Counted from the stretch's first letter, positions 2,898 to 31,111 are shown. The stretch is DNA of 33,588 bases from an uncultured Pseudobutyrivibrio sp. (GCA_946548305.1 CAMNPQ010000005.1:1-33588); one strand, 5' to 3'. A program made the numbers and translations. Notes: generated from the letters alone by a model not told the origin.

Positions 2898-5800
2898 ATG
2901 ACTAGACTGAGTAAACTATTGAAAAAGCTGGTGACTCCTGTTGCATTAATTAGCTTATTTGGTTGTTGTATTTGTGGGGCGGTTTTTGCAAAAGAGAATG
3001 TAGCTCAAAGTGAAAAAGTTCAGATTGGTGGAGGCTATGCCGCATCAAAACAATTAGGGCAGGTGGGATACTCTGCCCAGATTTATGATGCCACAAATGG
3101 TCTGCCCACCTCAGAGGCAAATTATATACTGGCAGCCGAAGATGGCTTCATTTGGATAGGGGGCTACAGCGGTATAATCAGGTATGACGGCAATGAATTT
3201 ACCAGATTTACCAATACCGATGGACTTACCAGTGGAAGAGCTTTGTTTCAGGATTCGAAAAATAGAATCTGGATTGGAACAAACGATAATGGAATAGTTT
3301 ATTTTGATACAGACAGGGGTGCTCACCATTATTCTGTGGCAGATGGTCTGCCTTCATCTTCAATTCGTACCTTTGCCGAGGATGAAAATGGAAATGTTTT
3401 TATAGGAACAACAGAGGGCGCAGCTTACTTTGACAATAGTGGTACTCTGTGCTCTTTTGATGATGAAAGAATCAATACACAAAGAATTCTTAGAATGGTA
3501 TCCGCAAGTGATGGCACTATTTACGGCTACACCAAAACCGGGGATATTTTTCAAATAAATGACTGCGAGCTTTCAAACTATATTGAAGGCAAATCTATAT
3601 CAAATCTGGAAATATCAAATATCTATGCTGATAAAGCAAATCAAGGTAAAGTTTATTTAGGAACAAAAACTGACAAGGTGTATTATGGCACTTTTGGAGA
3701 AAAGCTTTCAGATATGGAAGAAATATCTGTGAGTCCACTGAAAAATGTGAAGTGGGTGGATTATGCCTGTGGCAGAATATGGGTGGCATCAGAAAGTGCA
3801 TTTGGATATTTAGATGAAAAAGGTACTTTCACGCTTGTTGAAAATGTACCAATTAATAATGGCATAGAGATGATGACAGCCGACTATCAGGGAAATATAT
3901 GGATTGCATCTTCAAGACAAGGTGTGATGAAGCTGGTGGTAAACAATTTTTCAGATGTAACGAGAAATGCAGGACTGGAAAGTGAAGTGGTAAACACCAC
4001 CTGCAAACTGAACAATTCTCTTTACGTGGGTACAAATGATGGACTTAGAATACTAAAGAATCTGACAACCCCTGAGGAAAATGAACTCACGGATTATTTG
4101 AAGGGGGCAAAAATACGCTGTATTACAAAGGATGATGAGGACAATCTGTGGCTTTCCACCTTTGACAGCAAGCTGGGCTTGGTGTGTGCCAAAGCCGATG
4201 GAAGAATAATCAATTTTACCACGGCAGAAGGAATGCCAAGCAACGAGGTGAGATGTGCAAAGCAAGCCAGTGATGGAAGAATAATAGCTGGAACTAATGG
4301 AGGCCTGGCAATCATCAAGGATGATGAAGTGGTGGATTCCGTAGACTCCAGTGATGGCATAAAAAACACTGTATTTTTAGATATAGAAGATGGATTGGAT
4401 GGAGAGATATATGCTGCCACTGACGGTGACGGTATGTATGTTATCAAATCAGATTCCATAGAAAGATATGGAAGTGAAGCAGGTCTCACCAGTGATGTTA
4501 TCAACAGAATAAAATGGGATGAAAAAAGAAAGCTGTATTGGATTGTCACATCCAATTCCATTGAGTACATGAAGGATGGGCAAATCACCTGCGTCACCTC
4601 ATTTCCCTATAATAATATAGACAATATTTATTATGATGATAATGATGGGCTTTGGGTGCTGGCATCAAATGGTATTTACACTGTGAAGGTGGAAGAAATG
4701 CTAGAGGATAGGGTGGAAGACTATCAGCTGTATACAATGGCCAACGGACTCACCAGTATGCCTGTTTTATCAGAGTATTCCGATATAGATGCAGAAGGAA
4801 ATTTGTACATATCGGGGATAACCGGAGTATCTGCTGTTAATATCAACAACTATTACACTGGAAGTATGTGGATAAAGACAGGAGTTACTAATATTTTTTG
4901 TGATGATGAAAGCATTATCCCACAAAAGGATGGCACCTATGTGCTTCCTGCAACAAAGGGACGTATCCAAATAGTTCCGGCAGTTTTAGATTATTCCATG
5001 ACAAATCCGCTGATTCATGTATATTTGGAGGGAAGCAACGATAATGGGTATATAGAATACAGAGACAATATCACCTCACTGGAATTTACAGGCTTGAGAT
5101 ACGGCAAATATACTCTCCATGTGCAGGTACTGTCCGCAAATGGTGATGAAATTCTGGTGGATGATTTATACAAAATAAATAAGGAGCCTACCTTTTTTGA
5201 GAGAACTGCTGTCAGAGTGATGCTGGTAATTCTTTTTGCGGTATTTTCTGGTCTTGTGGTATGGCAGTTTATGACTCAAACCGTCATTCGCAGACAATAT
5301 ATGGAAATCGCCCAGGCTAAGGACGAGGCAGAGCGGGCAAACTCGGCAAAATCCAGATTTTTAGCAAATATGTCCCATGAAATAAGAACACCTATAAACA
5401 CTATTATGGGTATGGATGAAATGATTTTGAGGGAGAATCCTGACGGAGTGCCAAAGCCGTATCTAATGTCCGTTATCAACAATGCAATGGATATCATGAC
5501 TGCCTCAGAAACACTACTTGGTCTTATAAATGAAATACTTGATATATCCAAAATTGAATCCGGCAAAATGCATTTAGTGGAGCAGGACTATGAGCCAGAG
5601 GAACAGCTTAGAGCTATTATCACTATGATAAGGGTTAAAAGTGATGAAAAGGAATTGAAATTCGATGTGGATATTGATGAAAATATTCCAAAGAAGCTGT
5701 ACGGAGATGCAGGAAAGATAAAACAAATCACCCTGAACCTTCTGACAAACGCTGTAAAATATACTGAAAAAGGTGGATTTACATTAAAGGTTCAGCAGGA

Positions 5801-7148
5801 AAAAACAGAAAAAGATTATAGCGATATCAGAATATCTGTCAAAGATACAGGAATAGGTGTAAAAAAAGAGGATTTGGACAAGCTTTTTACCGCCTATGAG
5901 AGACTGGATGAGGAAAGAAACAGTGCAATTCAAGGAACAGGATTGGGACTGGATATCTCCAGAAGATTCAGTGAGCTGATGGGTGGAAAGCTCTGGTGTG
6001 AAAGTGAATATGGAAAAGGCTCTGAGTTTATTTTCACGTTCAAACAAAAAATAGTGGATGCCACACCAATAGGAGAGTTCAAGGAGCGTGTGGAGGAGGT
6101 TCCACAAGGCTTTTATGCACCTAAATTCATTGCTCCTGATGCCCATATACTTGTGGTGGACGATACACCAATGAATTTAAACGTAATCAAGGGATTATTA
6201 AAGCCTACAAAGATAGACATCACCACAGCTACAAGCGGAGCGGAATGTCTTGAAAAGGTGAAAGGGCAAAAGTTTCATGTGGTGCTTCTAGACCATCTAA
6301 TGCCAGAGATGGATGGAATCGAGACACTTCAAAAGCTCAGGGAAATAGACAAAGAAGTGCCTGTATATGCCCTTACAGCCAACACATCACCTGATGCAGA
6401 AAAATACTACAAGGAAAAAGGCTTTAGTGGATATCTGGCAAAGCCTATTGACACCAGTGTCATGGAGTCTACCTTGATGGAACACATAAAGGATGTGATT
6501 ATAGAACGCCCAGCAGAAGCCATGGATGAAATCGAGCCTACAGAGCTGTCTGAGGATATGCAGTGGCTAAAGGATGTGGAAGGCTTGGATTTAGATTTGG
6601 GCATTAAAAATTCAGGCGGAATAACTGTTTTCACACATAGCATTAAAGACTTCTATGATACTATTGATTTTAATGCAGACACAATTGAGGATGCATTTGA
6701 AGGCAAGGACTACAAGCTTTACACAGTAAAGGTTCATGCCCTGAAAACCTCAGCGAGAATTGTGGGTGCTACAGCACTTTCAATAGCTTCCGAGCAATTG
6801 GAAAATGCCGGTAAAAATAACGATATTGATTTTATACAGGCAAACACAGCCGCTTTATTAAAAGACTACAGAGCATTTAAGGATAGACTTTCAAAGCTTG
6901 ATACAGGCAAAGACCACGGTGCAAGTGATGCAAGAGAGGATATAACAAAGTCTGATTTAGACAGTGCATACGAAGCTCTAAAGGAACTGGTAGAGCAAAT
7001 GGATTATGATGGAGTGGAGCTGGTAATTTCGCAGGTAAATGATTATAAATTGCCAGAGGAAGATGCTGAAAAATTCAAAGAGTTGAAAAGACTATTGCAA
7101 CGGTTTGATTGGGATGCAATGGAAAATATGCTAAGAGAGGAGAATTAA
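2898..7148 (+). CDS. Large hybrid two-component sensor: signal/TM, beta-propeller (Reg_prop-like) repeats, TM, HisKA-HATPase-REC-HPt
   Basis: Repeated 'ED..GxIWIG' and 'GLPSSSIRTFAEDENGNVFIGT' propeller motifs, FLANMSHEIRTPINT H-box, DTGIGV/GTGLGL, ILVVDDTPMN...LLDHLMPEMDG, VKVHALKTSARIVGA HPt. Confidence 0.88.
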   Translation: MTRLSKLLKKLVTPVALISLFGCCICGAVFAKENVAQSEKVQIGGGYAASKQLGQVGYSAQIYDATNGLPTSEANYILAAEDGFIWIGGYSGIIRYDGNEFTRFTNTDGLTSGRALFQDSKNRIWIGTNDNGIVYFDTDRGAHHYSVADGLPSSSIRTFAEDENGNVFIGTTEGAAYFDNSGTLCSFDDERINTQRILRMVSASDGTIYGYTKTGDIFQINDCELSNYIEGKSISNLEISNIYADKANQGKVYLGTKTDKVYYGTFGEKLSDMEEISVSPLKNVKWVDYACGRIWVASESAFGYLDEKGTFTLVENVPINNGIEMMTADYQGNIWIASSRQGVMKLVVNNFSDVTRNAGLESEVVNTTCKLNNSLYVGTNDGLRILKNLTTPEENELTDYLKGAKIRCITKDDEDNLWLSTFDSKLGLVCAKADGRIINFTTAEGMPSNEVRCAKQASDGRIIAGTNGGLAIIKDDEVVDSVDSSDGIKNTVFLDIEDGLDGEIYAATDGDGMYVIKSDSIERYGSEAGLTSDVINRIKWDEKRKLYWIVTSNSIEYMKDGQITCVTSFPYNNIDNIYYDDNDGLWVLASNGIYTVKVEEMLEDRVEDYQLYTMANGLTSMPVLSEYSDIDAEGNLYISGITGVSAVNINNYYTGSMWIKTGVTNIFCDDESIIPQKDGTYVLPATKGRIQIVPAVLDYSMTNPLIHVYLEGSNDNGYIEYRDNITSLEFTGLRYGKYTLHVQVLSANGDEILVDDLYKINKEPTFFERTAVRVMLVILFAVFSGLVVWQFMTQTVIRRQYMEIAQAKDEAERANSAKSRFLANMSHEIRTPINTIMGMDEMILRENPDGVPKPYLMSVINNAMDIMTASETLLGLINEILDISKIESGKMHLVEQDYEPEEQLRAIITMIRVKSDEKELKFDVDIDENIPKKLYGDAGKIKQITLNLLTNAVKYTEKGGFTLKVQQEKTEKDYSDIRISVKDTGIGVKKEDLDKLFTAYERLDEERNSAIQGTGLGLDISRRFSELMGGKLWCESEYGKGSEFIFTFKQKIVDATPIGEFKERVEEVPQGFYAPKFIAPDAHILVVDDTPMNLNVIKGLLKPTKIDITTATSGAECLEKVKGQKFHVVLLDHLMPEMDGIETLQKLREIDKEVPVYALTANTSPDAEKYYKEKGFSGYLAKPIDTSVMESTLMEHIKDVIIERPAEAMDEIEPTELSEDMQWLKDVEGLDLDLGIKNSGGITVFTHSIKDFYDTIDFNADTIEDAFEGKDYKLYTVKVHALKTSARIVGATALSIASEQLENAGKNNDIDFIQANTAALLKDYRAFKDRLSKLDTGKDHGASDAREDITKSDLDSAYEALKELVEQMDYDGVELVISQVNDYKLPEEDAEKFKELKRLLQRFDWDAMENMLREEN

Positions 7149-7150
7149 TA

Positions 7151-7573
7151 TTGGACAACAAACTTTTTAGAAAAAAAACAATTGACAGAATATCGTCTCC
7201 AGAGCAGCTGACAGATTATTTAAAAGTGACTAACCCGGGAATATGGCTGATTCTTATTGCAGTGGTTTTGATTCTTGTGGGTTTTTTGGCGTGGGCTTCC
7301 GTAGGAACATTAACTACCACTGTGGATGCAACAGCCCAGATTGATAGTAAAGCTGCATATATAGTAGTCACAGGAAATAACAGCATAAAGGATGTGCAGA
7401 CAGGTATGAAGGTGATTGTGGACACTGAGGAGTATGTGATTTCAAATGTAGACACAGATGATTTAGGCAGAACAGTTGCTCATGCTACCATAGATTTGCC
7501 AGATGGAAAGTACAATTGCAAAATCGTGGTTGAGGAGATTCATCCCATTGTATTTCTGATGGAAGGTAGGTGA
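7151..7573 (+). CDS. Short HlyD/NHLM-type secretion (membrane-fusion-like) protein
   Basis: TTG start at 7151 (LDNKLFRKKTIDRISSPEQL). One TM (WLILIAVVLILVGFLAWASVG) then a beta-rich domain. Sits directly upstream of the exporter genes. The tracked start at 7109 overlaps the upstream CDS. Confidence 0.65.
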   Translation: MDNKLFRKKTIDRISSPEQLTDYLKVTNPGIWLILIAVVLILVGFLAWASVGTLTTTVDATAQIDSKAAYIVVTGNNSIKDVQTGMKVIVDTEEYVISNVDTDDLGRTVAHATIDLPDGKYNCKIVVEEIHPIVFLMEGR

Positions 7574-7577
7574 AATC

Positions 7578-9755
7578 ATGGAGAAAAAAATTCCACCATC
7601 CCTGACTCACGGTGTGGCAAAGGTACCTGTAATATTGCAGCTTGAAGCTTTAGAATGTGGTGCGGCATGCCTTGCTATGGTGATGGCTTACTATGGTAAA
7701 TGGGTCCCTCTAGAACAGGTAAGAGCCGATTGCGGTGTGTCCCGTGATGGCTCAAATGCAAAAAATATATTTAAAGCAGCAGAAAATTATGGCTTTGAAA
7801 CCTCAGCCTATAAAATGGATGCAGAGGAATTATTAACGGAAGGCGTATTTCCTTGCATAATTCATTGGAACATGAATCACTTTGTGGTTTTAAATGGTTT
7901 TAAAGGAAAAAAGGCATATATCAACGATCCTGCAAAGGGTCTAATTGTTGTAAACTGGGATATATTTGACGTTTCCTTTACTGGTATAGTAATAATGCCA
8001 GTGCCATCCAAAGAATTTAAACAGACAGGCAAACCAAAAAGCACTCTGGCCTTTGCAAAAAAGAGACTGGCAGGAGTGGGGGCTACCACAGTATTTGTTA
8101 TGATAGCCACTGCAATTGCCTATATGTTTGGAATACTGGATTCCATTACATCCAAAATATTTATAGACAGGCTGCTTACTGGAATTAATAGGGATTGGGT
8201 TCGCCCATTTATATATATACTGGTGGTTTTTGCCCTTTTGAACATAATAGTGCAGTGGGTAAACACCATATATTCTCTTAAAATCAATGGAAAAATGGCA
8301 GCGGTGGGAAGTTGCTCATATATGTGGAAGCTTTTAAAGCTTCCCATGGAATTTTATTCCCAGAGACTGGCTGGAGATATACAGGTAAGACTGGGGCTGA
8401 ACACAAGTATTGCAGCCACTTTGGTAAATACCTTTGGTCCACTTCTTATAAATTCTGTGATGATGGTTTTTTATCTGCTGCTGATGATTAAACAAAGCAG
8501 CCTGCTTACTGTCATAGGTCTTGCAGCAGTACTGATTAATATCTTTTTAGGAAAGGTTATTTCTGATAAAAGACTTGCTATTGCAAGAGTGCAGATGAGA
8601 GACGTGGGAAAGCTGGAAGCATCTACAGTAAGCGGAATTGATATGATAGAAACTATTAAAGCCAGTGGAGCGGAGAATGGTTTCTTTGAAAAGTGGTCAG
8701 GAATACAGGCATCAGTTAATTCTTCAAGTGTGAATTCTGCTCTTAACGAAGCCTGGCTTGGAACTATTCCAGCATTTTTTAGCAGCTTGGCAAACTATGT
8801 AGTACTTATCCTGGGTGCTTATCTTGTAATCAAAGGTGACTTCACTTTAGGTTCAGTATTGATGTTTCAGGGATTTTTAACATCCTTCATAGGTCCTGCC
8901 AACAGCCTTATATCAGTTGGACAGACTATTTTGGAGATGCGCACCAATATGGAGCGAGTAGAGGATGTTATGGAATATCCAGATGATGTGGGACTCACAG
9001 AAAATTTAGATGCTTCCACCCAAAACATTTCAAAGCTAAAGGGTGGAGTGGAGATTAATAATCTCACATTTGGTTATTCAAGGCTGGGAGAGCCTGTTTT
9101 AAAGAATTTCAATCTGTCTATAAAGCCCGGAGAAAGGGTAGCTATAGTAGGTGCCACTGGCTGTGGAAAATCCACTTTGTCAAAGCTGATATCGGGACTG
9201 TATCAGCCTTGGGAAGGGGAGATTTTATTTGATGGAAAGCCACGCAGCGCATATCCAAGAGAAGTGATGACAGGCTCAGTTGCTGTGGTGGATCAGGACA
9301 TCATTGTGTTTGAGGATACCATTGCAAACAACATCAAAATGTGGGATGAGTCAATCAAAGATTTTGAAATGATTTTAGCCGCAAGGGATGCACAGATACA
9401 TGATGACATATTAAAAATGCCTGATGGCTACAAACATAAACTGGTATCAGGGGGCAAGGATTTGTCTGGAGGCCAAAGGCAGCGTATGGAAATAGCCCGC
9501 GTGCTAGCCCAGGATCCCATTATTATAATTTTAGATGAAGCCACAAGTGCTCTTGATGCCAAGACTGAATATGATGTGGTGGAGGCTATCAAGGCTAGAG
9601 GCATCACATGCATAGTTATTGCCCATAGACTTTCCACAATTCGTGATTGCGATAAAATCATAGTTCTTGATGATGGAGAGATAGCAGAGCAGGGTACACA
9701 TGAGACCTTGCTGGCAGCTGGCGGTATTTACGAACAATTGATAGCTAATGAGTGA
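7578..9755 (+). CDS. NHLM/PCAT-type peptidase-containing ABC transporter (C39 peptidase, TMD, NBD)
   Basis: C39 domain VPVILQLEALECGAACLAMVMAYYGKWV...CIIHWNMNHFVVL; Walker A GATGCGKST; signature LSGGQRQRMEIARVL; Walker B IIILDEATSALD. Confidence 0.92.
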   Translation: MEKKIPPSLTHGVAKVPVILQLEALECGAACLAMVMAYYGKWVPLEQVRADCGVSRDGSNAKNIFKAAENYGFETSAYKMDAEELLTEGVFPCIIHWNMNHFVVLNGFKGKKAYINDPAKGLIVVNWDIFDVSFTGIVIMPVPSKEFKQTGKPKSTLAFAKKRLAGVGATTVFVMIATAIAYMFGILDSITSKIFIDRLLTGINRDWVRPFIYILVVFALLNIIVQWVNTIYSLKINGKMAAVGSCSYMWKLLKLPMEFYSQRLAGDIQVRLGLNTSIAATLVNTFGPLLINSVMMVFYLLLMIKQSSLLTVIGLAAVLINIFLGKVISDKRLAIARVQMRDVGKLEASTVSGIDMIETIKASGAENGFFEKWSGIQASVNSSSVNSALNEAWLGTIPAFFSSLANYVVLILGAYLVIKGDFTLGSVLMFQGFLTSFIGPANSLISVGQTILEMRTNMERVEDVMEYPDDVGLTENLDASTQNISKLKGGVEINNLTFGYSRLGEPVLKNFNLSIKPGERVAIVGATGCGKSTLSKLISGLYQPWEGEILFDGKPRSAYPREVMTGSVAVVDQDIIVFEDTIANNIKMWDESIKDFEMILAARDAQIHDDILKMPDGYKHKLVSGGKDLSGGQRQRMEIARVLAQDPIIIILDEATSALDAKTEYDVVEAIKARGITCIVIAHRLSTIRDCDKIIVLDDGEIAEQGTHETLLAAGGIYEQLIANE

Positions 9756-11949
9756 GGGTAAAATGAGTAACTGGTTTGAAGACCAAATTGAAGAGAGAAG
9801 AAATGCAGACAGGATTGCCCTGGAGGATTCCTTTAATCAAATAGCATCAGTGGTGCTGGGAAAGAATCTTGCAACTAAGCTGGAGGATGAAAGAACAGTC
9901 GCAAAGGATGCTTTGGAAGAGATTTTAAAGTTCTATCATCTAAAGCCTGTAGATATACCGGAATATATAGAAAGTGCTGAAGACCAGATGGACTATGTCT
10001 TAAGGCACCATGGCATGATGAAAAGAACTGTGGAGCTGACAGGAAAATGGTATAACGATGGCTATGGTCCTATGCTGGGAATTTTTAAGGATACGGGGTT
10101 GCCTGTGGCTATTTTGCCATACAATTTACGTGGCTATTACTATGTGGATAAGGTCACAGGTAAAAAGATAAAGTTCAATAAAAAAACGGCAAAGCTTATT
10201 GAAAAAGAAGCCTTTTTCTTCTATAAGCCTATGCCTTTGAAGGAACTGGGCATCCCGGATTTACTTATATTTCTAAAGGATTGCCTGAGTGTAGGTGATA
10301 TATTTTTGCTGGTGGTTGCCATTGCCTTCGCCAGCTTTGTTGGAATTCTCATTCCAAAGATAACAGTGGCTATAACAGGTCCAGTACTTGATAGCAAAAA
10401 TGTGTCAGCCCTTGCGGGAGCTGCCATATTTTTATTCTGTATATCACTGTCACAGCAGATTATTTCAAGCATAGGCAGTTTACTGGGAGAGCGTATAGAG
10501 ATAAAGACTTCTCTAGCCATAGAATCATCAATGATGATGAGAGTGCTGGCACTTCCAGTCAGCTTTCATAGAGCATACAGCCCAGGAGAACTGAAATCCC
10601 GTTCAATGGCAGTAAATGATTTGTGTAGGCTGCTACAGAATATATTTTTGACAACAGGCTTATCAGCACTGGCATCCCTTGTATACTTTACGCAGATTTT
10701 TGATTTTACACCTGCTTTGATGGGTCCATCAATAATCATCATTCTTATAACAGTGGGATTTTCCATTGCTGTAATACTGCTTGAGGTATCAATAAGCAAA
10801 AAAATAAAGGAGCACACGGCCAAAGAATCAGGATTTTCTTATTCTTTAATCACAGGAATACAGAAGATAAAACTGGCAGGTGCTGAAAAAAGAATTTTTG
10901 CAAAGTGGTTGAGCATATACGCAGAGGGGGCAAAGCTAGAATATAATCCACCTACATTTTTAAAGCTGAGTAATGTGATAACCACAGCTATATCTTTGAT
11001 TTCGACAATAGTATTATATTATCTTGCAATAAAAAATAATCTTTCCAGCTCTGCATATTTTGCGTTTATTGCATCATATGGAGTGGTGATGGGGGCATTT
11101 TCATCAGTTTCAGCTGTGGCTTCATCTGCATCTCAAATCAAGCCAATACTGGAGCTGGCTGAGCCATTTTTGAAGACAGTGCCTGAAACCTCAGAGGACA
11201 AGGAAATTGTAACAGGGCTTACAGGAAACGTAGAAATAGCTCATGTATCATTTAGATACAGCGAGAAGACTCCTTATGTGCTGAGAGACATTTCCCTGAA
11301 AATAAAAGCAGGGGATTATGTGGCTATAGTGGGAAGGACAGGCTGTGGCAAGTCCACATTAGTCCGTCTGCTATTAGGTTTTGAAAAGCCTGAAAGTGGA
11401 ACTATCTACTATGATGGGACAGATGTTTCAGAGCTGGATTTAGGCTCTTTGAGAAAGAATATAGGAACTGTGACTCAGGATGGAAAACTGTTCCAGGGAG
11501 ATATTTATTCCAATATAGTAATAACTGACCCACGTCTAAGTATGGATGCTGCCTGGGAGGCAGCAGAAACTGCTGGTATAGCTGAGGATATTAGAAGAAT
11601 GCCAATGGGCATGTTTACTGTCATTTCAGAGGGACAGGGTGGCATATCAGGCGGTCAAAAGCAACGACTTATGATTGCAAGAGCTGTAGCTCCAAAGCCA
11701 AAGCTTTTGATACTTGATGAGGCAACCTCGGCACTGGATAATGTGACTCAAAAACAGGTGTCGGATGCTCTTGACAATATGGGCTGTACACGTATAGTAG
11801 TGGCCCATAGGCTTTCTACCATAAAAAACTGCAGCAGAATAATTGTAATTGATGATGGACAAATCATAGAGGACGGCAATTATGATGAGCTGATAGCAAA
11901 GAATGGATACTTTGCCGAGCTTGTAGCTCGTCAGAGACTTGACGCATAG
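9748..11949 (+). CDS. NHLM-type ABC transporter, second ATP-binding/permease subunit
   Basis: Overlaps the preceding CDS. Walker A GRTGCGKST, signature ISGGQKQRLMIARAV, Walker B LLILDEATSALD; long non-peptidase N-terminal domain. Confidence 0.9.
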   Translation: MSEGKMSNWFEDQIEERRNADRIALEDSFNQIASVVLGKNLATKLEDERTVAKDALEEILKFYHLKPVDIPEYIESAEDQMDYVLRHHGMMKRTVELTGKWYNDGYGPMLGIFKDTGLPVAILPYNLRGYYYVDKVTGKKIKFNKKTAKLIEKEAFFFYKPMPLKELGIPDLLIFLKDCLSVGDIFLLVVAIAFASFVGILIPKITVAITGPVLDSKNVSALAGAAIFLFCISLSQQIISSIGSLLGERIEIKTSLAIESSMMMRVLALPVSFHRAYSPGELKSRSMAVNDLCRLLQNIFLTTGLSALASLVYFTQIFDFTPALMGPSIIIILITVGFSIAVILLEVSISKKIKEHTAKESGFSYSLITGIQKIKLAGAEKRIFAKWLSIYAEGAKLEYNPPTFLKLSNVITTAISLISTIVLYYLAIKNNLSSSAYFAFIASYGVVMGAFSSVSAVASSASQIKPILELAEPFLKTVPETSEDKEIVTGLTGNVEIAHVSFRYSEKTPYVLRDISLKIKAGDYVAIVGRTGCGKSTLVRLLLGFEKPESGTIYYDGTDVSELDLGSLRKNIGTVTQDGKLFQGDIYSNIVITDPRLSMDAAWEAAETAGIAEDIRRMPMGMFTVISEGQGGISGGQKQRLMIARAVAPKPKLLILDEATSALDNVTQKQVSDALDNMGCTRIVVAHRLSTIKNCSRIIVIDDGQIIEDGNYDELIAKNGYFAELVARQRLDA

Positions 11950-11958
11950 AGTAAAATG

Positions 11959-11992
11959 TGTGACACTTGTGTGACAAAAACTATGCTATTAT
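11959..11992 (+). promoter_or_regulatory. Putative OmpR/PhoB-like direct-repeat operator with -10 box
   Basis: TGTGACA (11959-11965) - cttg - TGTGACA (11970-11976) - N10 - TATTAT (11987-11992); same layout at 18183 and 21774. Confidence 0.6.
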
Positions 11993-12037
11993 ATCATCAA
12001 CAAAAGGAATATATTAGAAAATTCGGAGGTATGAATA

Positions 12038-12271
12038 ATGAAGGTAGAAATTAAGGATTTGGAAAATGTAGCAGGTGGCGTTAGCACAGGTGGTGATGTG
12101 GTTGCCTTCTGCAAGACCTGCGGTCAGAAGCTTAAATATTTAGGACAGACTCATATTGAAGGTGGCAACACAGGACAATACGAGTGTGAAAACACAAACT
12201 ACAACGGAACAGGGAAAAACTGTCCTGAGTACCACGTAATCAAAGACAATAACGAGGTCAGCTTTAAGTAA
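12038..12271 (+). CDS. Small double-glycine-leader peptide with four-Cys core (candidate exported peptide 1)
   Basis: MKVEIKDLENVAGG leader (L at -7, V at -4, GG at -2/-1); core VSTGGDVVAFCKTCGQ...YECENTNYNGTGKNCPEYH. SD ggagg 8 nt upstream. Confidence 0.8.
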   Translation: MKVEIKDLENVAGGVSTGGDVVAFCKTCGQKLKYLGQTHIEGGNTGQYECENTNYNGTGKNCPEYHVIKDNNEVSFK

Positions 12272-12303
12272 TTTAGGCTGTGAGGGCTATGTGGAGGCGA
12301 GGT

Positions 12304-12492
12304 ATGAATATGGAAGAATTAGAATTTGATGAGCTTGGAAAAGTTGACGGTGGCAGTCAGGTATTAGGAAGCAGCGCAGGCGTGGAAGCAAGCCACTTTT
12401 GCCCAAAGTGCCAAAAGGTTACTCAGTTTATTGTATTTTCTGGAGCCAGAGGCAAATGTAAAGAGTGCGGCACTATGGTTTATGATTTGTAA
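12304..12492 (+). CDS. Small double-glycine-leader peptide with CPKC/CKEC zinc-ribbon-like core (candidate exported peptide 2)
   Basis: MNMEELEFDELGKVDGG leader; core SQVLGSSAGVEASHFCPKCQKVTQFIVFSGARGKCKECGTMVYDL. SD tggagg 6 nt before ATG 12304, so the tracked GTG at 12280 is probably not the start. Confidence 0.78.
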   Translation: MNMEELEFDELGKVDGGSQVLGSSAGVEASHFCPKCQKVTQFIVFSGARGKCKECGTMVYDL

Positions 12493-12513
12493 TAAGTCAA
12501 TATATACTCCTTT

Positions 12514-12566
12514 CTAGGGTCATGTGTAATGTGATTGATTTTCAGTTGCATTACATATGACCCTAG
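12514..12566 (+). terminator. Long hairpin between the peptide genes and glmS (terminator-like, weak U-tract)
   Basis: CTAGGGTCATGTGTAATG (12514-12531) pairs with CATTACATATGACCCTAG (12549-12566): 18 bp with one G-U, 17-nt loop. Confidence 0.5.
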
Positions 12567-12655
12567 ATGTTTGTTAGTTATTTTGTGACTTATTGGAAAA
12601 TATATGGTAAAATGTATAAGATTGTTTTTTATTATTTATTTAAGGAGACAAATTT

Positions 12656-21773: not shown

Positions 21774-21807
21774 TGTGACACTTTTGTGACAATTCGTGTG
21801 GCATAAT
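21774..21807 (+). promoter_or_regulatory. Putative OmpR/PhoB-like direct-repeat operator with -10 box
   Basis: TGTGACA (21774-21780) - cttt - TGTGACA (21785-21791) - N10 - CATAAT (21802-21807). Confidence 0.6.
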
Positions 21808-21842: not shown

Positions 21843-22280
21843 ATGAAAAAAGTTTTTGAATGTGAAGCTACGGTTGAAAATTTGACTAACGCATCAGCAT
21901 TTGCAGAGGCTGAACTTGAAGAGCTAGGTTGTGGCATGAGGCAAATGATGCAGCTGTCAGTTGCTTTAGAAGAGATTTATGTAAACATTGCCCATTATGC
22001 CTATGCAAAACTTGATGATAATGGCAAGCCGATTCCAAATACAGGGGTTGGTCCTATGAAGCTGACTGTGGATTCTGACGAGGAAAATGTGTATCTCATT
22101 TTTGAAGATGAGGGGATGCCATATAATCCTTTGGAAAAGGAAGACCCGGATGTGACCCTTGCAGCAGAGGATAGAGAAATAGGTGGACTTGGAATTTTTA
22201 TGGTCAAAAAGAGTATGGATGATGTATTATATGAATATAAGGATAATAAAAACATCCTAACATTAGTGAAAAAACTGTGA
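21843..22280 (+). CDS. RsbW-like anti-sigma / serine-protein kinase (HATPase_c_2)
   Basis: N-box LSVALEEIYVNIAHYAY, G1 IFEDEGMPYNPL, G2 GGLGIFMVKKSMDDVLYEY. Confidence 0.85.
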   Translation: MKKVFECEATVENLTNASAFAEAELEELGCGMRQMMQLSVALEEIYVNIAHYAYAKLDDNGKPIPNTGVGPMKLTVDSDEENVYLIFEDEGMPYNPLEKEDPDVTLAAEDREIGGLGIFMVKKSMDDVLYEYKDNKNILTLVKKL

Positions 22281-22348: not shown

Positions 22349-23563
22349 ATGCAATCAGAACATGTAAAAATTGGAACATTGCAGGAAAACCTTGACAGAG
22401 TGGAGGATATTCTTGAGGATTATCTTTTCCGACTGGACATTAAAGGTAAGGATGCAATTAGATTTAATTTATTAACAGAGGAAGCACTTAGACTGGCAAA
22501 GTCCATTACAAGCGACGAGACAGCAGTAGAGCTATGGTTTGAAGGAAATGCCAGGGTGTCTCACATCTGCCTGATGCTTGAAAGCAAGCTTACACCAAAT
22601 AAGGAAGAGAAATTTATTTCTATTTCATCATCAAAAGAAAACAGTGCCGACCACACATTTTTTGATGACCTGAAGGAATTCTTTATTAAGCCTAGCAAAC
22701 CTACCTGGTCTTTGGCTGAATACGAAGCAGAAGTTATGAAGAAACGCTGTGCTGACAAGTATTCTGAAGAAGCCTGGGGCAATCTGGAGCGTTCTGTGCT
22801 GGCAAATCTGGCAAACGATATTTCTGTTGGAGTAAAGGATAATCATGTTCTTATGATTATCACAAAGGATTTTTCAAAATCCCTTGGTACAATCAATTCA
22901 AACAGACCACTTCAGACATCTAGCCAGATTTTTGTATCTTCAGATGAAGAGTCACTTAAAAAGGCATATGCCAGGGTAGATGGGGTAGTTGATGAGGTGA
23001 AACTCTCAGGCAAAAATGCTCTTAGAGTAAAGCTATTGTTAGAAGAGACAATCGGAATGGTTGAAGAAATGACAGGGGATTTTTCAGCTTTGCTCTGGTT
23101 GGAACAATATAAGGGCGAATGTGCTCTAAAGCTTGTGGGTAACACAAAGATTGACGCAGACAAAAAATATGATATTCTATCATTATCTACTACTGGAGAA
23201 AATGCTTTAGTTCATGGCTTTATGGGCAAATTAAAGGACATGATTGAGACTGGTATTTTAAATTACGAAAGTGTCATGAAGCTTAACCAGGAGTACAACG
23301 GCATCAGCGTAAATTATGCTGGAATGGGTGCTTACAATGATGTGTCCATCGCTACAAACCCTACAGCAATGTCGGGCTTTATGTGGTCAATGGTAGACTA
23401 TCGTAATGGCTTGGATGGCGAGAGAAACACCAATGAGGGCGTAAAGGCAGCTTGGGATGAATTGGAGAAATCTATTGTTGCTAGTATTGCTGATGATGTA
23501 ATAGTTGGTGTTAAAAATAATAAAGTACAAATGACTATGATTTATAAACTTAAGGAGGATTAA
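22349..23563 (+). CDS. Unknown protein with internal duplication, within partner-switching-like module
   Basis: Two similar halves, each starting near 'R(V)xxxxEdxxxxlxlxGKdAlRxxLLxEEt' and ending 'WxxLEksVxAxiADDixVGVKxNkVxMxi'. Confidence 0.7.
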   Translation: MQSEHVKIGTLQENLDRVEDILEDYLFRLDIKGKDAIRFNLLTEEALRLAKSITSDETAVELWFEGNARVSHICLMLESKLTPNKEEKFISISSSKENSADHTFFDDLKEFFIKPSKPTWSLAEYEAEVMKKRCADKYSEEAWGNLERSVLANLANDISVGVKDNHVLMIITKDFSKSLGTINSNRPLQTSSQIFVSSDEESLKKAYARVDGVVDEVKLSGKNALRVKLLLEETIGMVEEMTGDFSALLWLEQYKGECALKLVGNTKIDADKKYDILSLSTTGENALVHGFMGKLKDMIETGILNYESVMKLNQEYNGISVNYAGMGAYNDVSIATNPTAMSGFMWSMVDYRNGLDGERNTNEGVKAAWDELEKSIVASIADDVIVGVKNNKVQMTMIYKLKED

Positions 23564-24503: not shown

Positions 24504-24663
24504 TGAAGATAAAACAGGCATTGCCCTTGCAAATGGTGATTCACTTTCCTACACTTTCAGCAATGCCCAAGTCCTTCAAAAGATTGCATCTGAAATGAAA
24601 TATGATATTTGGGTGGGGAGAGTGATTGATTATTTAATAAATGTTTGGAGGGAACATAATTGA
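24475..24663 (+). CDS. 62-aa small protein of unknown function between the LOR gene and csm6
   Basis: Strong SD (gcaggaggaggcaaATG) inside the 3' end of the LOR CDS. Its stop TGA (24661-24663) overlaps the TTG start of csm6 (24660-24662). Confidence 0.6.
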   Translation: MLLLQLERINEDKTGIALANGDSLSYTFSNAQVLQKIASEMKYDIWVGRVIDYLINVWREHN

Positions 24664-25979
24664 GTAAAACTGTGCTTTTTTCCCCAGTTGGTGGGACCGA
24701 CCCAATTTCGCAAAATAATATACGAGATGGTTCACTTTTGCATATATGCAGATGGTACAAGCCAGACGAGGTATATCTATATATGTCAAAGGAAATGCTG
24801 GATTTTCAAGAGCAAGACGATAGATATAGATTTTGTATACAAAAGCTAGCAGAACAACAATCAAGAGAGATTATTATTAATGAAATAGAACGCTCAGATT
24901 TAATAAATGTACAGGACTATGATTATTATTACAGTGATTTCAGGAGTATAATCGCAGACATTTCAGCTTCATTGTCCAGCGAAGATAAGCTGATATTAAA
25001 TGTATCTTCAGGAACACCTGCGATGAAAAGCGGATTGATTGTACTAGCTACTCTTGGTGAATTTAATTGCAAAACAATACAGGTTGTAACACCAGTACGA
25101 AGAATAAATGAGCATAATCATAAAAACTATGATGTTCAGACACTGTGGGAATTAAATGAAGACAACAATGGGGATTCTGAAAACAGATGCAAAGAAGTTG
25201 TTTGTCCAACCTTGTCAAATATCAAACAGGAAGAAATAATCAAGCGATTACTCAAGGTGTATGACTATCAAGCCGCCTATTTAGCAGCAGAAAGCTTACC
25301 GTCAGAAAAAACAATAAACTATTTGGAACTATTACATGTGGCATATAAACGAATACAGCTTGATAATCAAGGACTAAATGCTTTAGTGAAAAAACATAAT
25401 ATGGAAGGCTTTCCAATAAAAAATGACGGAAGCAGAGAAATATTTGAGTATGCCTTAGCACTGGATATAAAGCGTAAGCGGGGTGAATATGCTGACTTTG
25501 CAAGAGCCATATCACCGCTTATAGTGGCATTATTTAGGGATGTATTATTAAAACAAGAGCAAGTACGCATAGAAGATTATACAAAAAATGAAAATGGTAG
25601 GGAATACTGGGATAGAGGAAAGCTGGCTGGCACAAAGCTAGATGAAATATTTAAAAATAAATGGCCTTATTTTAAATATGATTGGCCTCAATCCTCTCAT
25701 ATTTCACTTTTAACGCAGAAATTGATTACTAATCCTAAGATAGTTGATTTATGTTCAAAGCTAAGATCAGTAGAAGAAGGAGCAAGAAACGTGGCGGCTC
25801 ATCAAATAGTATCTCTTACGGAGGATGGCTTTAAAAAGAAGACTGGGTATTCCCCTGCTGATGTAAGTGGTTTGATTAAGGAATTGTGCAAATATACTAC
25901 ACTTAACATAAAGGATGAGTATTGGAATGCCTATGATGATATGAACAACTACATAATTAAGAAAATAGAGGAGATATGA
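24660..25979 (+). CDS. csm6: Type III-A CRISPR ancillary ribonuclease Csm6 (CARF-HEPN)
   Basis: CARF motif ILNVSSGTPAMKSGL; HEPN R-X4-H motif RNVAAH (25785-25802); first gene of a csm operon. Confidence 0.92.
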   Translation: MSKTVLFSPVGGTDPISQNNIRDGSLLHICRWYKPDEVYLYMSKEMLDFQEQDDRYRFCIQKLAEQQSREIIINEIERSDLINVQDYDYYYSDFRSIIADISASLSSEDKLILNVSSGTPAMKSGLIVLATLGEFNCKTIQVVTPVRRINEHNHKNYDVQTLWELNEDNNGDSENRCKEVVCPTLSNIKQEEIIKRLLKVYDYQAAYLAAESLPSEKTINYLELLHVAYKRIQLDNQGLNALVKKHNMEGFPIKNDGSREIFEYALALDIKRKRGEYADFARAISPLIVALFRDVLLKQEQVRIEDYTKNENGREYWDRGKLAGTKLDEIFKNKWPYFKYDWPQSSHISLLTQKLITNPKIVDLCSKLRSVEEGARNVAAHQIVSLTEDGFKKKTGYSPADVSGLIKELCKYTTLNIKDEYWNAYDDMNNYIIKKIEEI

Positions 25980-25989
25980 TAATCCTAAT

Positions 25990-26757
25990 ATGACAGAGAT
26001 AAACACAAATATATTGGCATCAATAACTATGGAGCTATCAGCAGATGGAATAAACTATAGAAAAGCGTCCGATTTTCAAGGTGTACTTTTTACAAAGATA
26101 GATTCAGAGTATGCCGACTTCCTTCATAAGGAACAGATGCATCCCTACAGTCAATACATTTATCAGGATGAGCACAGATGGTATTGGAAAGTAAGTACAC
26201 TTAATAATGAAGCCTATAAAAGAATAATAGAACCGTTATTAGCACCTGAATTTAATTGTTTTCATATAAATAATGGAGACATTAATGTGGATATTAAAAA
26301 TAAATCTATTGTAACTAAAAGCTATTCAGATTTAATGGAGGACTTCTATGAAAAGCCTGCTGAAAAGAACTTTGATTTGCGGATATTAACACTTACTGCA
26401 TTCAAACAGAGAGGCAGATACAATGTGACACCAGATTTACGGTTGATATTTCAAAATCTTATGATGAAATATAGTATTATTCTTGGAAACGAAAATATGG
26501 AGGATGAGGATACATTAAATCAGATTATAGATGATACTATTGTCTCTAAATATAGGTTAAAAACAGGAATCTTTCCAATTGAGGGACGAAACATTCCTGG
26601 CTTTAACGGAAACCTAAGCCTGAGGCTGTTTGGCTCTGAAACAATGATGCGCTATGTGCGGCTGCTTTTGAAATTTGGAGAATTCTCAGGAGTAGGAATA
26701 AAAACAGGAATGGGAATGGGAGCGATAAAAATAATTGAGGAGGAACCTAGTGACTGA
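25990..26757 (+). CDS. cas6: CRISPR-associated endoribonuclease Cas6
   Basis: C-terminal glycine-rich GEFSGVGIKTGMGMGAIKI; position between csm6 and cas10. Confidence 0.88.
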   Translation: MTEINTNILASITMELSADGINYRKASDFQGVLFTKIDSEYADFLHKEQMHPYSQYIYQDEHRWYWKVSTLNNEAYKRIIEPLLAPEFNCFHINNGDINVDIKNKSIVTKSYSDLMEDFYEKPAEKNFDLRILTLTAFKQRGRYNVTPDLRLIFQNLMMKYSIILGNENMEDEDTLNQIIDDTIVSKYRLKTGIFPIEGRNIPGFNGNLSLRLFGSETMMRYVRLLLKFGEFSGVGIKTGMGMGAIKIIEEEPSD

Positions 26758-29110
26758 TAAAGAATTGAAGGTGACAATTGGGGGCTTACTACATGATATA
26801 GGTAAGGTTATCTATCGTGAGGGAAATGAAAAAAGAACTCATAGTCAAATTGGATTTGAATATTTAAAAGAGAATATTGGAATTGAAGATAGGGATATTC
26901 TAGAATGCGTAAAATATCATCATGGGAAAGCACTAAGCAATAGTAGCATATCAGATGATTCCTTGGCTTATGTGGTATATATTGCTGACAATATAGCATC
27001 ATCTGTTGACAGGCGTGAAAAAATGTCAGATGAATCAGGATTTGAACTGCACACTCCACTGCAGCCTGTATTCAACCTTTTGAATGAAAATAATGGAAAA
27101 GATTACTATTCAACTAATAAATTAAATGTTGAAGAGAGCATAAATTTTCCCTCTTCAGAGAAAGGTACTTTTGCAAAAGAAGAGTACGCTAAAATAGTGA
27201 ATAACCTTACAGATAATCTGAAGGGAATCGATTATTCCTCTGAATATGTAAACTCGCTACTGGAAGTTATGGAAGCAAATCTTTCATTTGTGCCATCTTC
27301 CACATCAGCAGCTGAAGTTCCAGATATATCACTATATGATCATTTAAAACTGACAGCTGCTATTTCAAGTGCCATAGTAAAATATTTAGAGGATGAAGAA
27401 AGCGATTATAAGAGCACACTATTTAAAGCTGAGAAAGCATTTTATGAAAAAGAAGCATTTTTGATTGCAAGTATGGATATCTCTGGAATTCAAAAATTTA
27501 TATATACCATACAAACTAAAAATGCATTGAAGACACTTAGAGCAAGGTCATTTTATTTAGAGATTGTGATGGAGCATATTATTGACGAACTCCTGAATAC
27601 ACTAGGGCTTTCTAGATGCAATCTATTGTATGTTGGTGGCGGACATTGCTATTTATTACTTCCTAATACCCAACAATGTAAGACTGAGTTCGACGAGTTT
27701 ATCAAAAGGACTAATCAATGGTTTCTGGAAAAATTCCAAACAGAGCTTTATATAGCAGGTGGGTATGGCTCATGCTCAGCAAATAGTCTAAAAAATATTC
27801 CAAGTGGAAGCTATGAAGATATTTTTAAAAGAGTATCTTCAATGATATCAGAGCATAAAATCTGCAGATATGATGCGGATGTAATAAAGGCATTAAATAG
27901 CATAAAGCATGATGATTATACAAGGGAATGTTCTGTTTGTAAAAGAATAGCTGTTGGGGATGATAATGAACTTTGCCCGATTTGTTCAGGCTTTGAAAAG
28001 CTTTCAGCAAAGGTTTTGTATGCAGATTTCTTCACTGTTGAAAGGGATGAAAATAAGGACTTACTTCCTTTACCAGGAGGCTATAGTCTTTCGGTTGATA
28101 CAGATGAAACCCTAAAGAAAAAGATGGAGACTAGTGAAAATTTTGTGAGAGCCTATTGTAAGAATCGTTCTTATACAGGAAAACACATAGCTACAAAACT
28201 ATGGGTTGGCAGCTATTCCGCAAAAGCTACCTTTGAAGAATTTAGTAATACTGCTACAGGTATAAATCGTATAGGCGTTTTACGAGCAGATGTAGACAAT
28301 CTTGGAAATGCATTTGTTTCAGGCTTCCGTAATAAAGCCAATGACAATAGGTACATGACAATTTCCCGTACAGCAACACTGTCAAGGCAGCTTTCACTAT
28401 TCTTTAAATTACATATTAACAAGCTTTTAGAAAATCCTGAGTTTTCCCTTGATGGTAAAACAAAGGAGAAAAGAAATATCACAATAGTATATTCAGGAGG
28501 AGATGATGTATTTGTTGTTGGCTCTTGGAACGAAGTGATTGAATTTGCAGTAGACCTTAGTAATGCATTCAAAAAATATACAGAAAATACCCTTACCATT
28601 TCTGCAGGAATTGGAGTATACACAGATAACTATCCAATCAGTGTTATTGCCTCGGAAGTTGAACAGATGGAGGATGAATCCAAGGATTTGTCAGGCAAAG
28701 ATGCTATTACCTTGCTAGAGGACGGTGAATTTCATAATGAAGCTGGACAAAGTATTAGTGATGGCACATATAAGTGGCAGGAGTTTGAAACTGGCGTAAT
28801 AGCCGAAAAACTTAAAACGATTTCCACATACATGGATGCCACAGATAATCCGCATGGCAATGGTCTGTTGTACAGGATTTTAGAACTAATCAGAAATCAA
28901 AGTGAAAGAATAAACCTTGCTAGATTTGTCTATTTATTAGCTCGCCTGGAGCCAGATAGTCATTCTGATAATTACAAGGAAATAAAAGCGAAGTTTGACG
29001 TTTTTTCCAAAGACATGATTAGGTGGATAAACAATGAAAGGGATAGGCGACACTTGAAGACAGCAATTGAATTGTATGTATATATGCACAGAGGGGAGGA
29101 AACAAATTGA
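26750..29110 (+). CDS. cas10: Cas10/Csm1, type III-A, with HD and GGDD motifs
   Basis: HD motif GGLLHDIGK (HD at 26792-26797), CSVC..CPIC zinc finger, Palm GGDD (28496-28507). GTG 26750 is preceded by gaggagg; tracked TTG 26735 overlaps that SD. Confidence 0.95.
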   Translation: MTDKELKVTIGGLLHDIGKVIYREGNEKRTHSQIGFEYLKENIGIEDRDILECVKYHHGKALSNSSISDDSLAYVVYIADNIASSVDRREKMSDESGFELHTPLQPVFNLLNENNGKDYYSTNKLNVEESINFPSSEKGTFAKEEYAKIVNNLTDNLKGIDYSSEYVNSLLEVMEANLSFVPSSTSAAEVPDISLYDHLKLTAAISSAIVKYLEDEESDYKSTLFKAEKAFYEKEAFLIASMDISGIQKFIYTIQTKNALKTLRARSFYLEIVMEHIIDELLNTLGLSRCNLLYVGGGHCYLLLPNTQQCKTEFDEFIKRTNQWFLEKFQTELYIAGGYGSCSANSLKNIPSGSYEDIFKRVSSMISEHKICRYDADVIKALNSIKHDDYTRECSVCKRIAVGDDNELCPICSGFEKLSAKVLYADFFTVERDENKDLLPLPGGYSLSVDTDETLKKKMETSENFVRAYCKNRSYTGKHIATKLWVGSYSAKATFEEFSNTATGINRIGVLRADVDNLGNAFVSGFRNKANDNRYMTISRTATLSRQLSLFFKLHINKLLENPEFSLDGKTKEKRNITIVYSGGDDVFVVGSWNEVIEFAVDLSNAFKKYTENTLTISAGIGVYTDNYPISVIASEVEQMEDESKDLSGKDAITLLEDGEFHNEAGQSISDGTYKWQEFETGVIAEKLKTISTYMDATDNPHGNGLLYRILELIRNQSERINLARFVYLLARLEPDSHSDNYKEIKAKFDVFSKDMIRWINNERDRRHLKTAIELYVYMHRGEETN

Positions 29111-29502
29111 AAACTATAAATGATAGCAATTATGTAGATACTGCGGAAGCAGTTATAAAACACTTAAAGTCAAAGGTAAATACTAAAACAAATAAACCGA
29201 TTCCAATGGTCTCTACATCAAAAATCAGAAACCTTTTGGCTATGTCAGCGGACATTTACAACAATGTTTTGCTTCTGCAGGACGATACATTAAATGATGA
29301 ACTTGTTGGGCGCATAGAGTATTTAAGAATGAGATTTGTGTATGAAAGTGGCAGAGATCAAAGCGTAAAAGATTTTGTTTTAGAGGGAAAAATATTAGAT
29401 ATATTAAAGGAGATATCTGGTAGCAAGGCAAATTATATTTTGTTTAATCACTATATGGAAGCATTGATAGCTTATCATAAATTTTATGGTGGAAATGATT
29501 AG
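29107..29502 (+). CDS. csm2: Csm2 small subunit
   Basis: Small helical protein (TSKIRNLLAMSADIYN...LRMRFVYESGRD...VKDFV) between cas10 and csm3. Confidence 0.9.
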   Translation: MKTINDSNYVDTAEAVIKHLKSKVNTKTNKPIPMVSTSKIRNLLAMSADIYNNVLLLQDDTLNDELVGRIEYLRMRFVYESGRDQSVKDFVLEGKILDILKEISGSKANYILFNHYMEALIAYHKFYGGND

Positions 29503-29513
29503 GAGGCTGGGAA

Positions 29514-30173: not shown

Positions 30174-30186
30174 GGTAGGGCATGGT

Positions 30187-31107: not shown

Positions 31108-31111
31108 ATTT

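What the first reader, a model, noticed from the sequence alone, without database searches (positions are those of the whole stretch)
7151..12492. PCAT-type exporter paired with two double-glycine-leader, zinc-ribbon-like Cys4 mini-proteins
Directly after a C39-peptidase exporter and its partner ABC protein lie two short genes with aligned leaders: MKVEIKDLENVAGG and MNMEELEFDELGKVDGG (L at -7, V at -4, GG). Their cores are not typical bacteriocins: each has two Cys pairs (CKTC..C..C and CPKC..CKEC), the second a textbook zinc-ribbon knuckle pattern. No lanthipeptide, radical SAM or YcaO maturase is visible nearby. C39 cleavage after GG is established; export of metal-binding or disulfide mini-proteins as signals, metallophores or toxins is inference and could be a new class of substrate.
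Basis: partly seen in the sequence, partly recalled or inferred. Interest (0 to 1): 0.82.

Follow-up and report, generated by a model that had tools for sequence, protein, structure and literature searches.

The report
Exported zinc-ribbon mini-proteins with double-glycine leaders
A rumen bacterium makes two tiny proteins that look like zinc-binding folds behind a standard export tag, next to the pump that should cut off the tag and push them out; close and distant relatives show that such tagged zinc-fold proteins are a recurrent, apparently undescribed cargo of this pump family in gut bacteria.

Summary
Window 7151-11949 encodes a short HlyD-like protein, a C39-peptidase ABC exporter (TIGR03796) and its partner (TIGR03797-like): the NHLM/NHLP type of PCAT. 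Two short genes follow in one operon (12038-12271, 12304-12492), with double-glycine leaders and Cys4 cores. Both are real genes under purifying selection, with relatives in other Pseudobutyrivibrio species. The closest exporter type occurs in exactly the same six of 29 genomes, two of them with peptides and exporter apart. The C39 domain is 66% identical to LahT, a characterised double-glycine protease that uses L-12, L-7 and V-4; pep2 has all three, pep1 has V-12, L-7 and V-4. The pep2 core is a predicted zinc ribbon; pep1 probably another. Leader-plus-Cys4-ribbon peptides recur across this order: 10 of 11 carrier genomes at family level have an NHLM exporter (35 of 298 background), and 9 of 10 further carriers at order level. 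One genome has about 20. The peptide genes share an undescribed 11-bp direct-repeat box with lipoprotein and anti-sigma genes. Cleavage, export, metal binding and function are untested. New variant of a known kind: known exporter, apparently undescribed class of unmodified metal-fold cargo.

The parts
7151..7573 (+). Short HlyD-like accessory protein (about 140 aa, one TM helix plus a short barrel fragment; start codon inferred)
   Evidence: TIGR03794 N-terminal match 3.4e-8; same short form precedes ABC1 in many Lachnospiraceae NHLM loci
7578..9755 (+). ABC1: C39 peptidase-permease-ATPase, NHLM type
   Evidence: TIGR03796 878 bits, PF03412 4.8e-34; C39 domain 95/144 identical to LahT (6MPZ), Cys27, His101, Asp117 and Ile137 kept
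9748..11949 (+). ABC2: permease-ATPase partner without C39 domain
   Evidence: TIGR03797 671 bits, below the 709 cut-off
11959..11977 (+). Operator-like box TGTGACA-N4-TGTGACAA, about 10 bp upstream of an extended -10 (TGCTATTAT, hexamer 11987-11992)
   Evidence: Conserved upstream of pep1 in all six genomes; 39 sites in 10 of 29 genus genomes, 0 for the reversed pattern; 0 expected in the window by shuffling
12038..12271 (+). pep1: GG-leader peptide, leader MKVEIKDLENVAGG, Cys4 core of 63 aa
   Evidence: Relatives in five other Pseudobutyrivibrio genomes, 57-66% identity, GG and 4 Cys invariant; dN/dS 0.04-0.08 where measurable; weak PF13408 hits in 3 of 6 members
12304..12492 (+). pep2: GG-leader peptide, leader MNMEELEFDELGKVDGG, zinc-ribbon core of 45 aa
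   Evidence: Relatives in four Pseudobutyrivibrio genomes and other genera; AF2 ribbon region pLDDT 82-89, top folds mostly zinc ribbons though E is about 0.2
12513..12567 (+). Strong hairpin after pep2, terminator-like
   Evidence: MFE -38.8 kcal/mol, z = -10.3
21774..21792 (+). Second copy of the box, before the partner-switch genes
21843..22280 (+). RsbW-like anti-sigma kinase (HATPase_c_2 family); same regulatory box, same neighbourhood in relatives
   Evidence: Close relative L033:4440-4877 hits PF13581 at 1.3e-21
22349..23563 (+). 404-aa protein of unknown family that travels with the RsbW/STAS genes
   Evidence: No Pfam hit; shorter relative inside the Butyrivibrio NHLM locus L107
23566..23865 (+). 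STAS anti-anti-sigma-like protein
   Evidence: PF01740 1.1e-16

Best explanation
pep1 and pep2 are unmodified cargo of the adjacent NHLM-type exporter. Their leaders (hydrophobic -12, L-7, V-4, GG) dock on the C39 domain of ABC1, which cuts after GG while the ABC1/ABC2 pair with the short HlyD-like protein moves the core out of the cell. Outside, the pep2 core folds as a four-cysteine zinc ribbon (pep1 probably likewise, less certain). The peptide genes are switched on together with lipoproteins and an anti-sigma module through a PhoB/OmpR-like direct-repeat box, so the mini-proteins most likely act at or near the cell surface in response to an envelope or population cue. Shown by sequence: genes, leaders, selection, co-occurrence, shared box. 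Inferred: cleavage, export, metal binding, regulation and surface role.
For: C39 domain 66% identical to LahT with catalytic Cys/His/Asp and the Ile facing V-4 kept; LahT recognises V-4, L-7 and L-12 and tolerates diverse cores (PMC6363468), and PCAT1 specificity lies in the leader (PMC6959990). Among 32 leader-ribbon peptides: hydrophobic -12 in 32, L-7 in 30, V-4 in 30. Genus: pep1 and the closest exporter type (about 70% identical or more) in the same 6 of 29 genomes, unlinked in two. Family: 10 of 11 carriers NHLM-positive against 35 of 298 (P about 1e-9). Order: 9 of 10 further carriers against 57 of 295 (P about 1e-6). G402 has STAS-HlyD-ABC1-ABC2-two Cys4 ribbons, the window's order. 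G278: leaders 77% identical, cores 31%. Box shared with lipoprotein genes.
Against: No cleavage, secretion or metal data. G163 has two such peptides and no C39 domain in a 99% complete genome. A ribbon that binds zinc in the cytosol could block export, since the PCAT1 cargo appears unstructured in the channel (PMC6959990). pep1 fold prediction failed (pLDDT 50). Foldseek E-values for pep2 are not significant (0.2). Related genomes are not independent, so the P values overstate the case; carriers were recognised by inspection after a leader filter requiring hydrophobic -7 and -4.
Confidence: 0.72

Rival explanations
1. The peptides are a two-peptide class II bacteriocin: exported by the same route, with the Cys4 cores killing or inhibiting competitors.
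For: Two successive GG peptides beside a C39 exporter is the usual layout of unmodified two-peptide bacteriocins; Bacteriocin_IIc matches the pep2 leader weakly; the G278 array with conserved leaders and diverged cores resembles natural-product arrays.
Against: No adjacent immunity-like gene recognised in the window or G008; strong purifying selection on pep1; no hydrophobic membrane-active-looking core; pep2 is a predicted beta ribbon rather than an amphipathic helix.
Confidence: 0.2
2. The exported ribbons are signals (pheromones) read by a sensor kinase, possibly the large Reg_prop hybrid kinase encoded just upstream (2898-7148).
For: Hybrid kinases and a receiver protein lie directly upstream in the window and in G008; a response-regulator-like box precedes pep1 in all six genomes.
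Against: Hybrid kinase genes are not next to the exporter in G011 nor recognised next to the peptides in G006 and G011; Reg_prop kinases are often linked to glycan sensing (general knowledge); the box also occurs in genomes that lack the peptides (G004, G024, G028).
Confidence: 0.2
3. The peptides are cytosolic zinc ribbons and the leader resemblance is accidental.
For: Zinc ribbons are abundant inside cells; G163 has GG-ribbon peptides without a C39 exporter.
Against: Recognition positions -12, -7, -4 and GG are kept in dozens of otherwise dissimilar peptides; co-occurrence and synteny with NHLM exporters; Nif11-like leaders on some.
Confidence: 0.06
4. The cysteines are modified by a maturase encoded elsewhere (lanthipeptide, sactipeptide or heterocycle chemistry) and the zinc-ribbon look is coincidental.
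For: NHLM exporters and Nif11 leaders usually go with modified peptides (PMC2887384); other NHLM loci in the genus sit next to a protein that may be a radical SAM enzyme (family not tested).
Against: No maturase recognised in the window or beside the peptides in G008, G014 and G402; Cys spacing follows CPxC...CxxCG knuckles in otherwise unrelated cores; core hits are to zinc-ribbon families.
Confidence: 0.08

Closest known systems
LahT / LahA system of Lachnospiraceae bacterium C6A11 (AMS/PCAT, PMC6363468)
   Same: C39 domain 66% identical with the same catalytic residues; leader recognition positions V-4, L-7, hydrophobic -12; tolerant of diverse cores
   Different: LahA precursors have Nif11-type leaders and belong to a natural-product gene cluster; here leaders are short and cores are Cys4 ribbons without a recognised maturase
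PCAT1 / CtA of Clostridium thermocellum (PMC6959990)
   Same: C39 exporter with a small GG-leader protein cargo of similar size (24-residue leader, 66-residue cargo)
   Different: PCAT1 works as a homodimer; here ABC1 is paired with a C39-less ABC2 and a short HlyD. No metal fold was mentioned for CtA in the passages read
NHLP/Nif11 (NHLM) export systems (Haft 2010, PMC2887384)
   Same: The exporter trio TIGR03794/03796/03797; GG-terminated leaders; hypervariable cores in arrays such as G278
   Different: Window leaders are of the short bacteriocin type; HlyD is only about 140 aa; cores are predicted zinc ribbons; no modification enzyme in the cluster
Class II bacteriocins with double-glycine leader (Bacteriocin_IIc, TIGR01847)
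   Same: Short GG leader, two successive unmodified peptides, C39 exporter
   Different: Conserved Cys4 ribbon cores, no immunity gene recognised, NHLM rather than TIGR01193 exporter

Membership tests
NHLM/NHLP export system | C39-containing ABC1 at or above the TIGR03796 cut-off | tested here: met
   878 bits against 853.3
NHLM/NHLP export system | Partner ABC2 without peptidase (TIGR03797) | tested here: inconclusive
   Best match at 670.8 bits over nearly the full model but below the 709.4 cut-off
NHLM/NHLP export system | Full-length HlyD-like protein TIGR03794 | tested here: not met
   Only model positions 1-73 of 421 match, 32.8 bits against 156.2; a shortened form shared by Lachnospiraceae loci
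NHLP/Nif11 precursor peptides | Nitrile-hydratase or Nif11-type leader | tested here: not met
   Window peptides match neither TIGR03793 nor TIGR03798; relatives in G278 resemble Nif11 leaders below cut-off
C39 (PCAT) substrate | Leader L-12 xxx E-8 L-7 ... G-2 G-1 | tested here: met
   pep2 fits fully, pep1 with V-12 and D-8 (consensus from PMC6959990)
C39 (PCAT) substrate | Cleavage and export by the cognate transporter | not testable with these tools
   Needs biochemistry
Zinc ribbon (pep2) | Two Cys-x2-Cys knuckles on beta hairpins | tested here: met
   Cys pattern invariant in 11 relatives, hairpins with pLDDT 82-89, fold neighbours mostly zinc ribbons although E is about 0.2
Zinc ribbon (pep2) | Binds one zinc through four thiolates | not testable with these tools
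   Needs metal titration or native mass spectrometry
Zinc ribbon (pep1) | Two Cys-x2-Cys knuckles on beta hairpins | tested here: inconclusive
   Cys invariant but the second pair is C-x11-C; PF13408 only at 0.0055-0.04; model poor
Class II bacteriocin | Dedicated immunity gene | tested here: inconclusive
   None recognised next to the peptides in window or G008; a lipoprotein of unknown family is adjacent in G006, G011 and G014

The most novel reading that the evidence does not exclude
Anaerobic gut Firmicutes of this order use NHLM exporters to secrete a large, diversifying family of unmodified zinc-ribbon mini-proteins (about 20 in one genome), an extracellular small-metalloprotein repertoire that has not been recognised because each gene is short and its core looks like an ordinary intracellular zinc finger.
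Probability: 0.5. Interest if true: 0.82.

Novelty: new variant of a known kind. Interest (0 to 1): 0.66.

Why it matters
C39/NHLM exporters are usually annotated as bacteriocin or modified-peptide systems. If their cargo in gut Lachnospiraceae is often a zinc ribbon, exporters without maturases gain a substrate class, small ORFs usually called cytosolic zinc fingers become secreted proteins, and a testable question opens: how a metal-binding fold is kept unfolded for export and what it does outside an anaerobic cell.

Tried and rejected
Plasmid search with pep1 and phage search with a consensus-like pep2 sequence: no match. Viral-contig scans failed technically, so relatives there are untested. 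pep1 fold comparison uninformative because of a poor model. PDB sequence search with pep1 gave nothing credible. A first survey of 40 family-level NHLM loci with a strict leader filter found no further adjacent short-leader Cys4 ribbon; linked cases appeared only with relatives-based searches, so adjacency is not the rule. Weak A1/A2/A5 hits in long open frames were set aside as ordinary zinc ribbons or chance. A6 is too general to count on its own (206 of 295 genomes at E 0.01), so only ORFs inspected for leader and core were counted. Literature: no paper joining Nif11, or double-glycine leader with NHLM, to zinc ribbons; the main text of the Hungate1000 bacteriocin survey mentions neither zinc nor Nif11.

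Full report
OBSERVATION. The window is contig C5 of a 2.6-Mb draft genome. The nearest relatives of the peptides in named records are Pseudobutyrivibrio from ruminants, so the host is taken to be Pseudobutyrivibrio or very near it. Genes in order: hybrid kinase (70-2112), receiver protein (2131-2889), Reg_prop hybrid kinase (2898-7148), short HlyD (7151-7573), ABC1 (7578-9755), ABC2 (9748-11949), pep1 (12038-12271), pep2 (12304-12492), then a GlmS-like gene and sugar-nucleotide genes. pep1 and pep2 both have good ribosome-binding sites, and a strong hairpin follows pep2, so they look like a two-gene unit with its own promoter.

REAL GENES. pep1 has full-length relatives in five other genomes of the genus (57-66% identity) and pep2 in four (44-59%); GG and all four Cys are kept. 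Synonymous change far exceeds amino-acid change: pep1 dN/dS about 0.04-0.08 and pep2 0.10-0.29 where measurable, apart from one very close pep2 pair at 0.51.

EXPORTER. ABC1 passes the TIGR03796 cut-off; ABC2 is nearest TIGR03797 but below cut-off; HlyD is a shortened form matching only the start of TIGR03794, which recurs in many Lachnospiraceae loci. The C39 domain is 95/144 identical to LahT (PDB 6MPZ) with Cys27, His101, Asp117 and also Ile137 kept. In LahT the leader residues V-4, L-7 and L-12 sit in hydrophobic pockets and many unrelated cores are tolerated (PMC6363468); in PCAT1 specificity lies in the leader and the cargo is unstructured in the channel (PMC6959990). Both window leaders have V-4 and L-7, with V-12 (pep1) or L-12 (pep2). 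Only one C39 domain was found in the held, 78% complete genome, so this is the obvious exporter.

CO-OCCURRENCE IN THE GENUS. pep1 occurs in 6 of 29 genomes. The exporters about 70% identical or more to the window's ABC1 occur in exactly those six. In G008 pep1 lies before HlyD and pep2 after ABC2; in G014 both lie before HlyD with a lipoprotein gene between; in G006 and G011 peptides and exporter are on different contigs. Co-occurrence despite different arrangement argues for a functional link, although the six genomes may share ancestry.

A WIDER CLASS. A genome scan with the pep2 family found GG-leader zinc-ribbon peptides in Butyrivibrio, Eubacterium and unnamed Lachnospiraceae. In L107 such a peptide lies about 2.5 kb upstream of an NHLM exporter, in L113 just upstream of one, next to a GG peptide with a weak SH3_3 match. 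A profile search of 298 genomes, about one per genus of the family, followed by inspection, found short ORFs with leader and four-Cys core in 11 genomes: G000, G080, G107, G108, G109, G163, G181, G220, G259, G267 and G278. Ten are among the 35 NHLM-positive genomes; hypergeometric P about 1e-9. The exception, G163, has no C39 domain at all. In an order-level sample ten further inspected carriers were found, nine NHLM-positive against 57 of 295 (P about 1e-6). P values ignore relatedness and should be read as strong association, not exact probabilities. In G402 (L229) the order is STAS, HlyD, ABC1, ABC2, then two peptides with Nif11-like leaders and Cys4 cores: the window's layout with another leader type. 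G278 has one C39 exporter and 20 matches to the leader-ribbon profile; nine inspected members share leaders at 77% and cores at 31% mean identity, all 36 pairs with leader above core. Over 32 collected leaders, position -12 is hydrophobic in all, -7 is Leu in 30 and -4 is Val in 30; hydrophobic -7 and -4 were part of the selection filter for many, -12 was not.

FOLD. pep2 ribbon residues have pLDDT 82-89 and the best PDB neighbours are mostly zinc ribbons such as eL43 and TFIIS, but with E about 0.2. Family profiles hit zinc-ribbon families weakly. pep1 gave a poor model and weak hits to the recombinase zinc ribbon in three of six members; its metal binding is an inference.

REGULATION. Upstream of pep1 in all six genomes lies TGTGACA-N4-TGTGACAA, repeats 11 bp apart, about 10 bp before an extended -10. 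A variant (TATGACA twice) precedes pep2 in G008. The exact pattern has 39 sites in 10 of 29 genus genomes and none for the reversed pattern. Downstream genes are mostly two lipoprotein families, an RsbW-like kinase, a surface protein, a 43-aa ORF and pep1. The window has three sites: 11959 (pep1), 18183 (before a DUF975 gene) and 21774 (before the RsbW-like gene). Spacing and position resemble PhoB/OmpR-type sites (general knowledge); the regulator is unknown. RsbW, STAS, SpoIIE-type or 404-aa-type genes lie near 17 of 53 NHLM loci and none of 40 control loci, but the controls hold less than a quarter of the sequence.

HOW IT MOST LIKELY WORKS. The leader docks on C39, is cut after GG, and the core is threaded out, probably without metal, then takes up zinc outside. 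The link to a lipoprotein and anti-sigma regulon points to a role at the cell surface. Antagonism and signalling remain open. Purifying selection and the absence of a recognised immunity gene make a classical bacteriocin less likely for the window pair; the diverged G278 array may serve a different use.

NOVELTY. The exporter and leader logic are known; the cargo class was not found in the papers searched, in a library that lacks many subscription papers. Hence a new variant of a known kind.

Noticed in passing
window 11959, 18183, 21774: TGTGACA-N4-TGTGACA direct-repeat box defines a small regulon of lipoproteins, an RsbW-like kinase, a 43-aa ORF (MVVGQIINCSTVDEVIRKAFELKDKG...) and pep1; exact sites in 10 of 29 genus genomes.
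   Followed up: partly
L152:958-8481 and L149:6356-6637 (G278): Array of Nif11-like-leader peptides with very different four-Cys zinc-ribbon cores; 20 profile matches in one genome with a single C39 exporter.
   Followed up: partly
L113:10125-10427: GG-leader peptide whose core weakly matches the bacterial SH3 domain (PF08239, 0.0019), between a GG zinc-ribbon peptide and an NHLM exporter: exported mini-domains may not be limited to zinc ribbons.
   Followed up: partly
L107:9733-9963 and L108:10199-10438: A second GG-peptide family without Cys, similar in the two loci, paired with the zinc-ribbon peptide in two Butyrivibrio genomes.
   Followed up: no
L143:7389-7694 and 11969-12283 (G163): GG-leader zinc-ribbon peptides in a 99% complete genome with no detectable C39 peptidase; exporter unknown.
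   Followed up: partly
window 24660-32212: Type III-A CRISPR effector genes: Csm6, Cas6, Cas10, Csm2, Csm3, Csm4, Csm5.
   Followed up: partly
window 22349-23563: 404-aa protein without Pfam match that travels with RsbW-like and STAS genes near NHLM exporters.
   Followed up: partly
L040:11589-13437 and L043:3571-5419: A second NHLM exporter type in four genus genomes; where seen, it sits next to a peptide with a long acidic leader and Cys/Gly-rich tail and a 482-aa protein that may be a radical SAM maturase (not tested).
   Followed up: no
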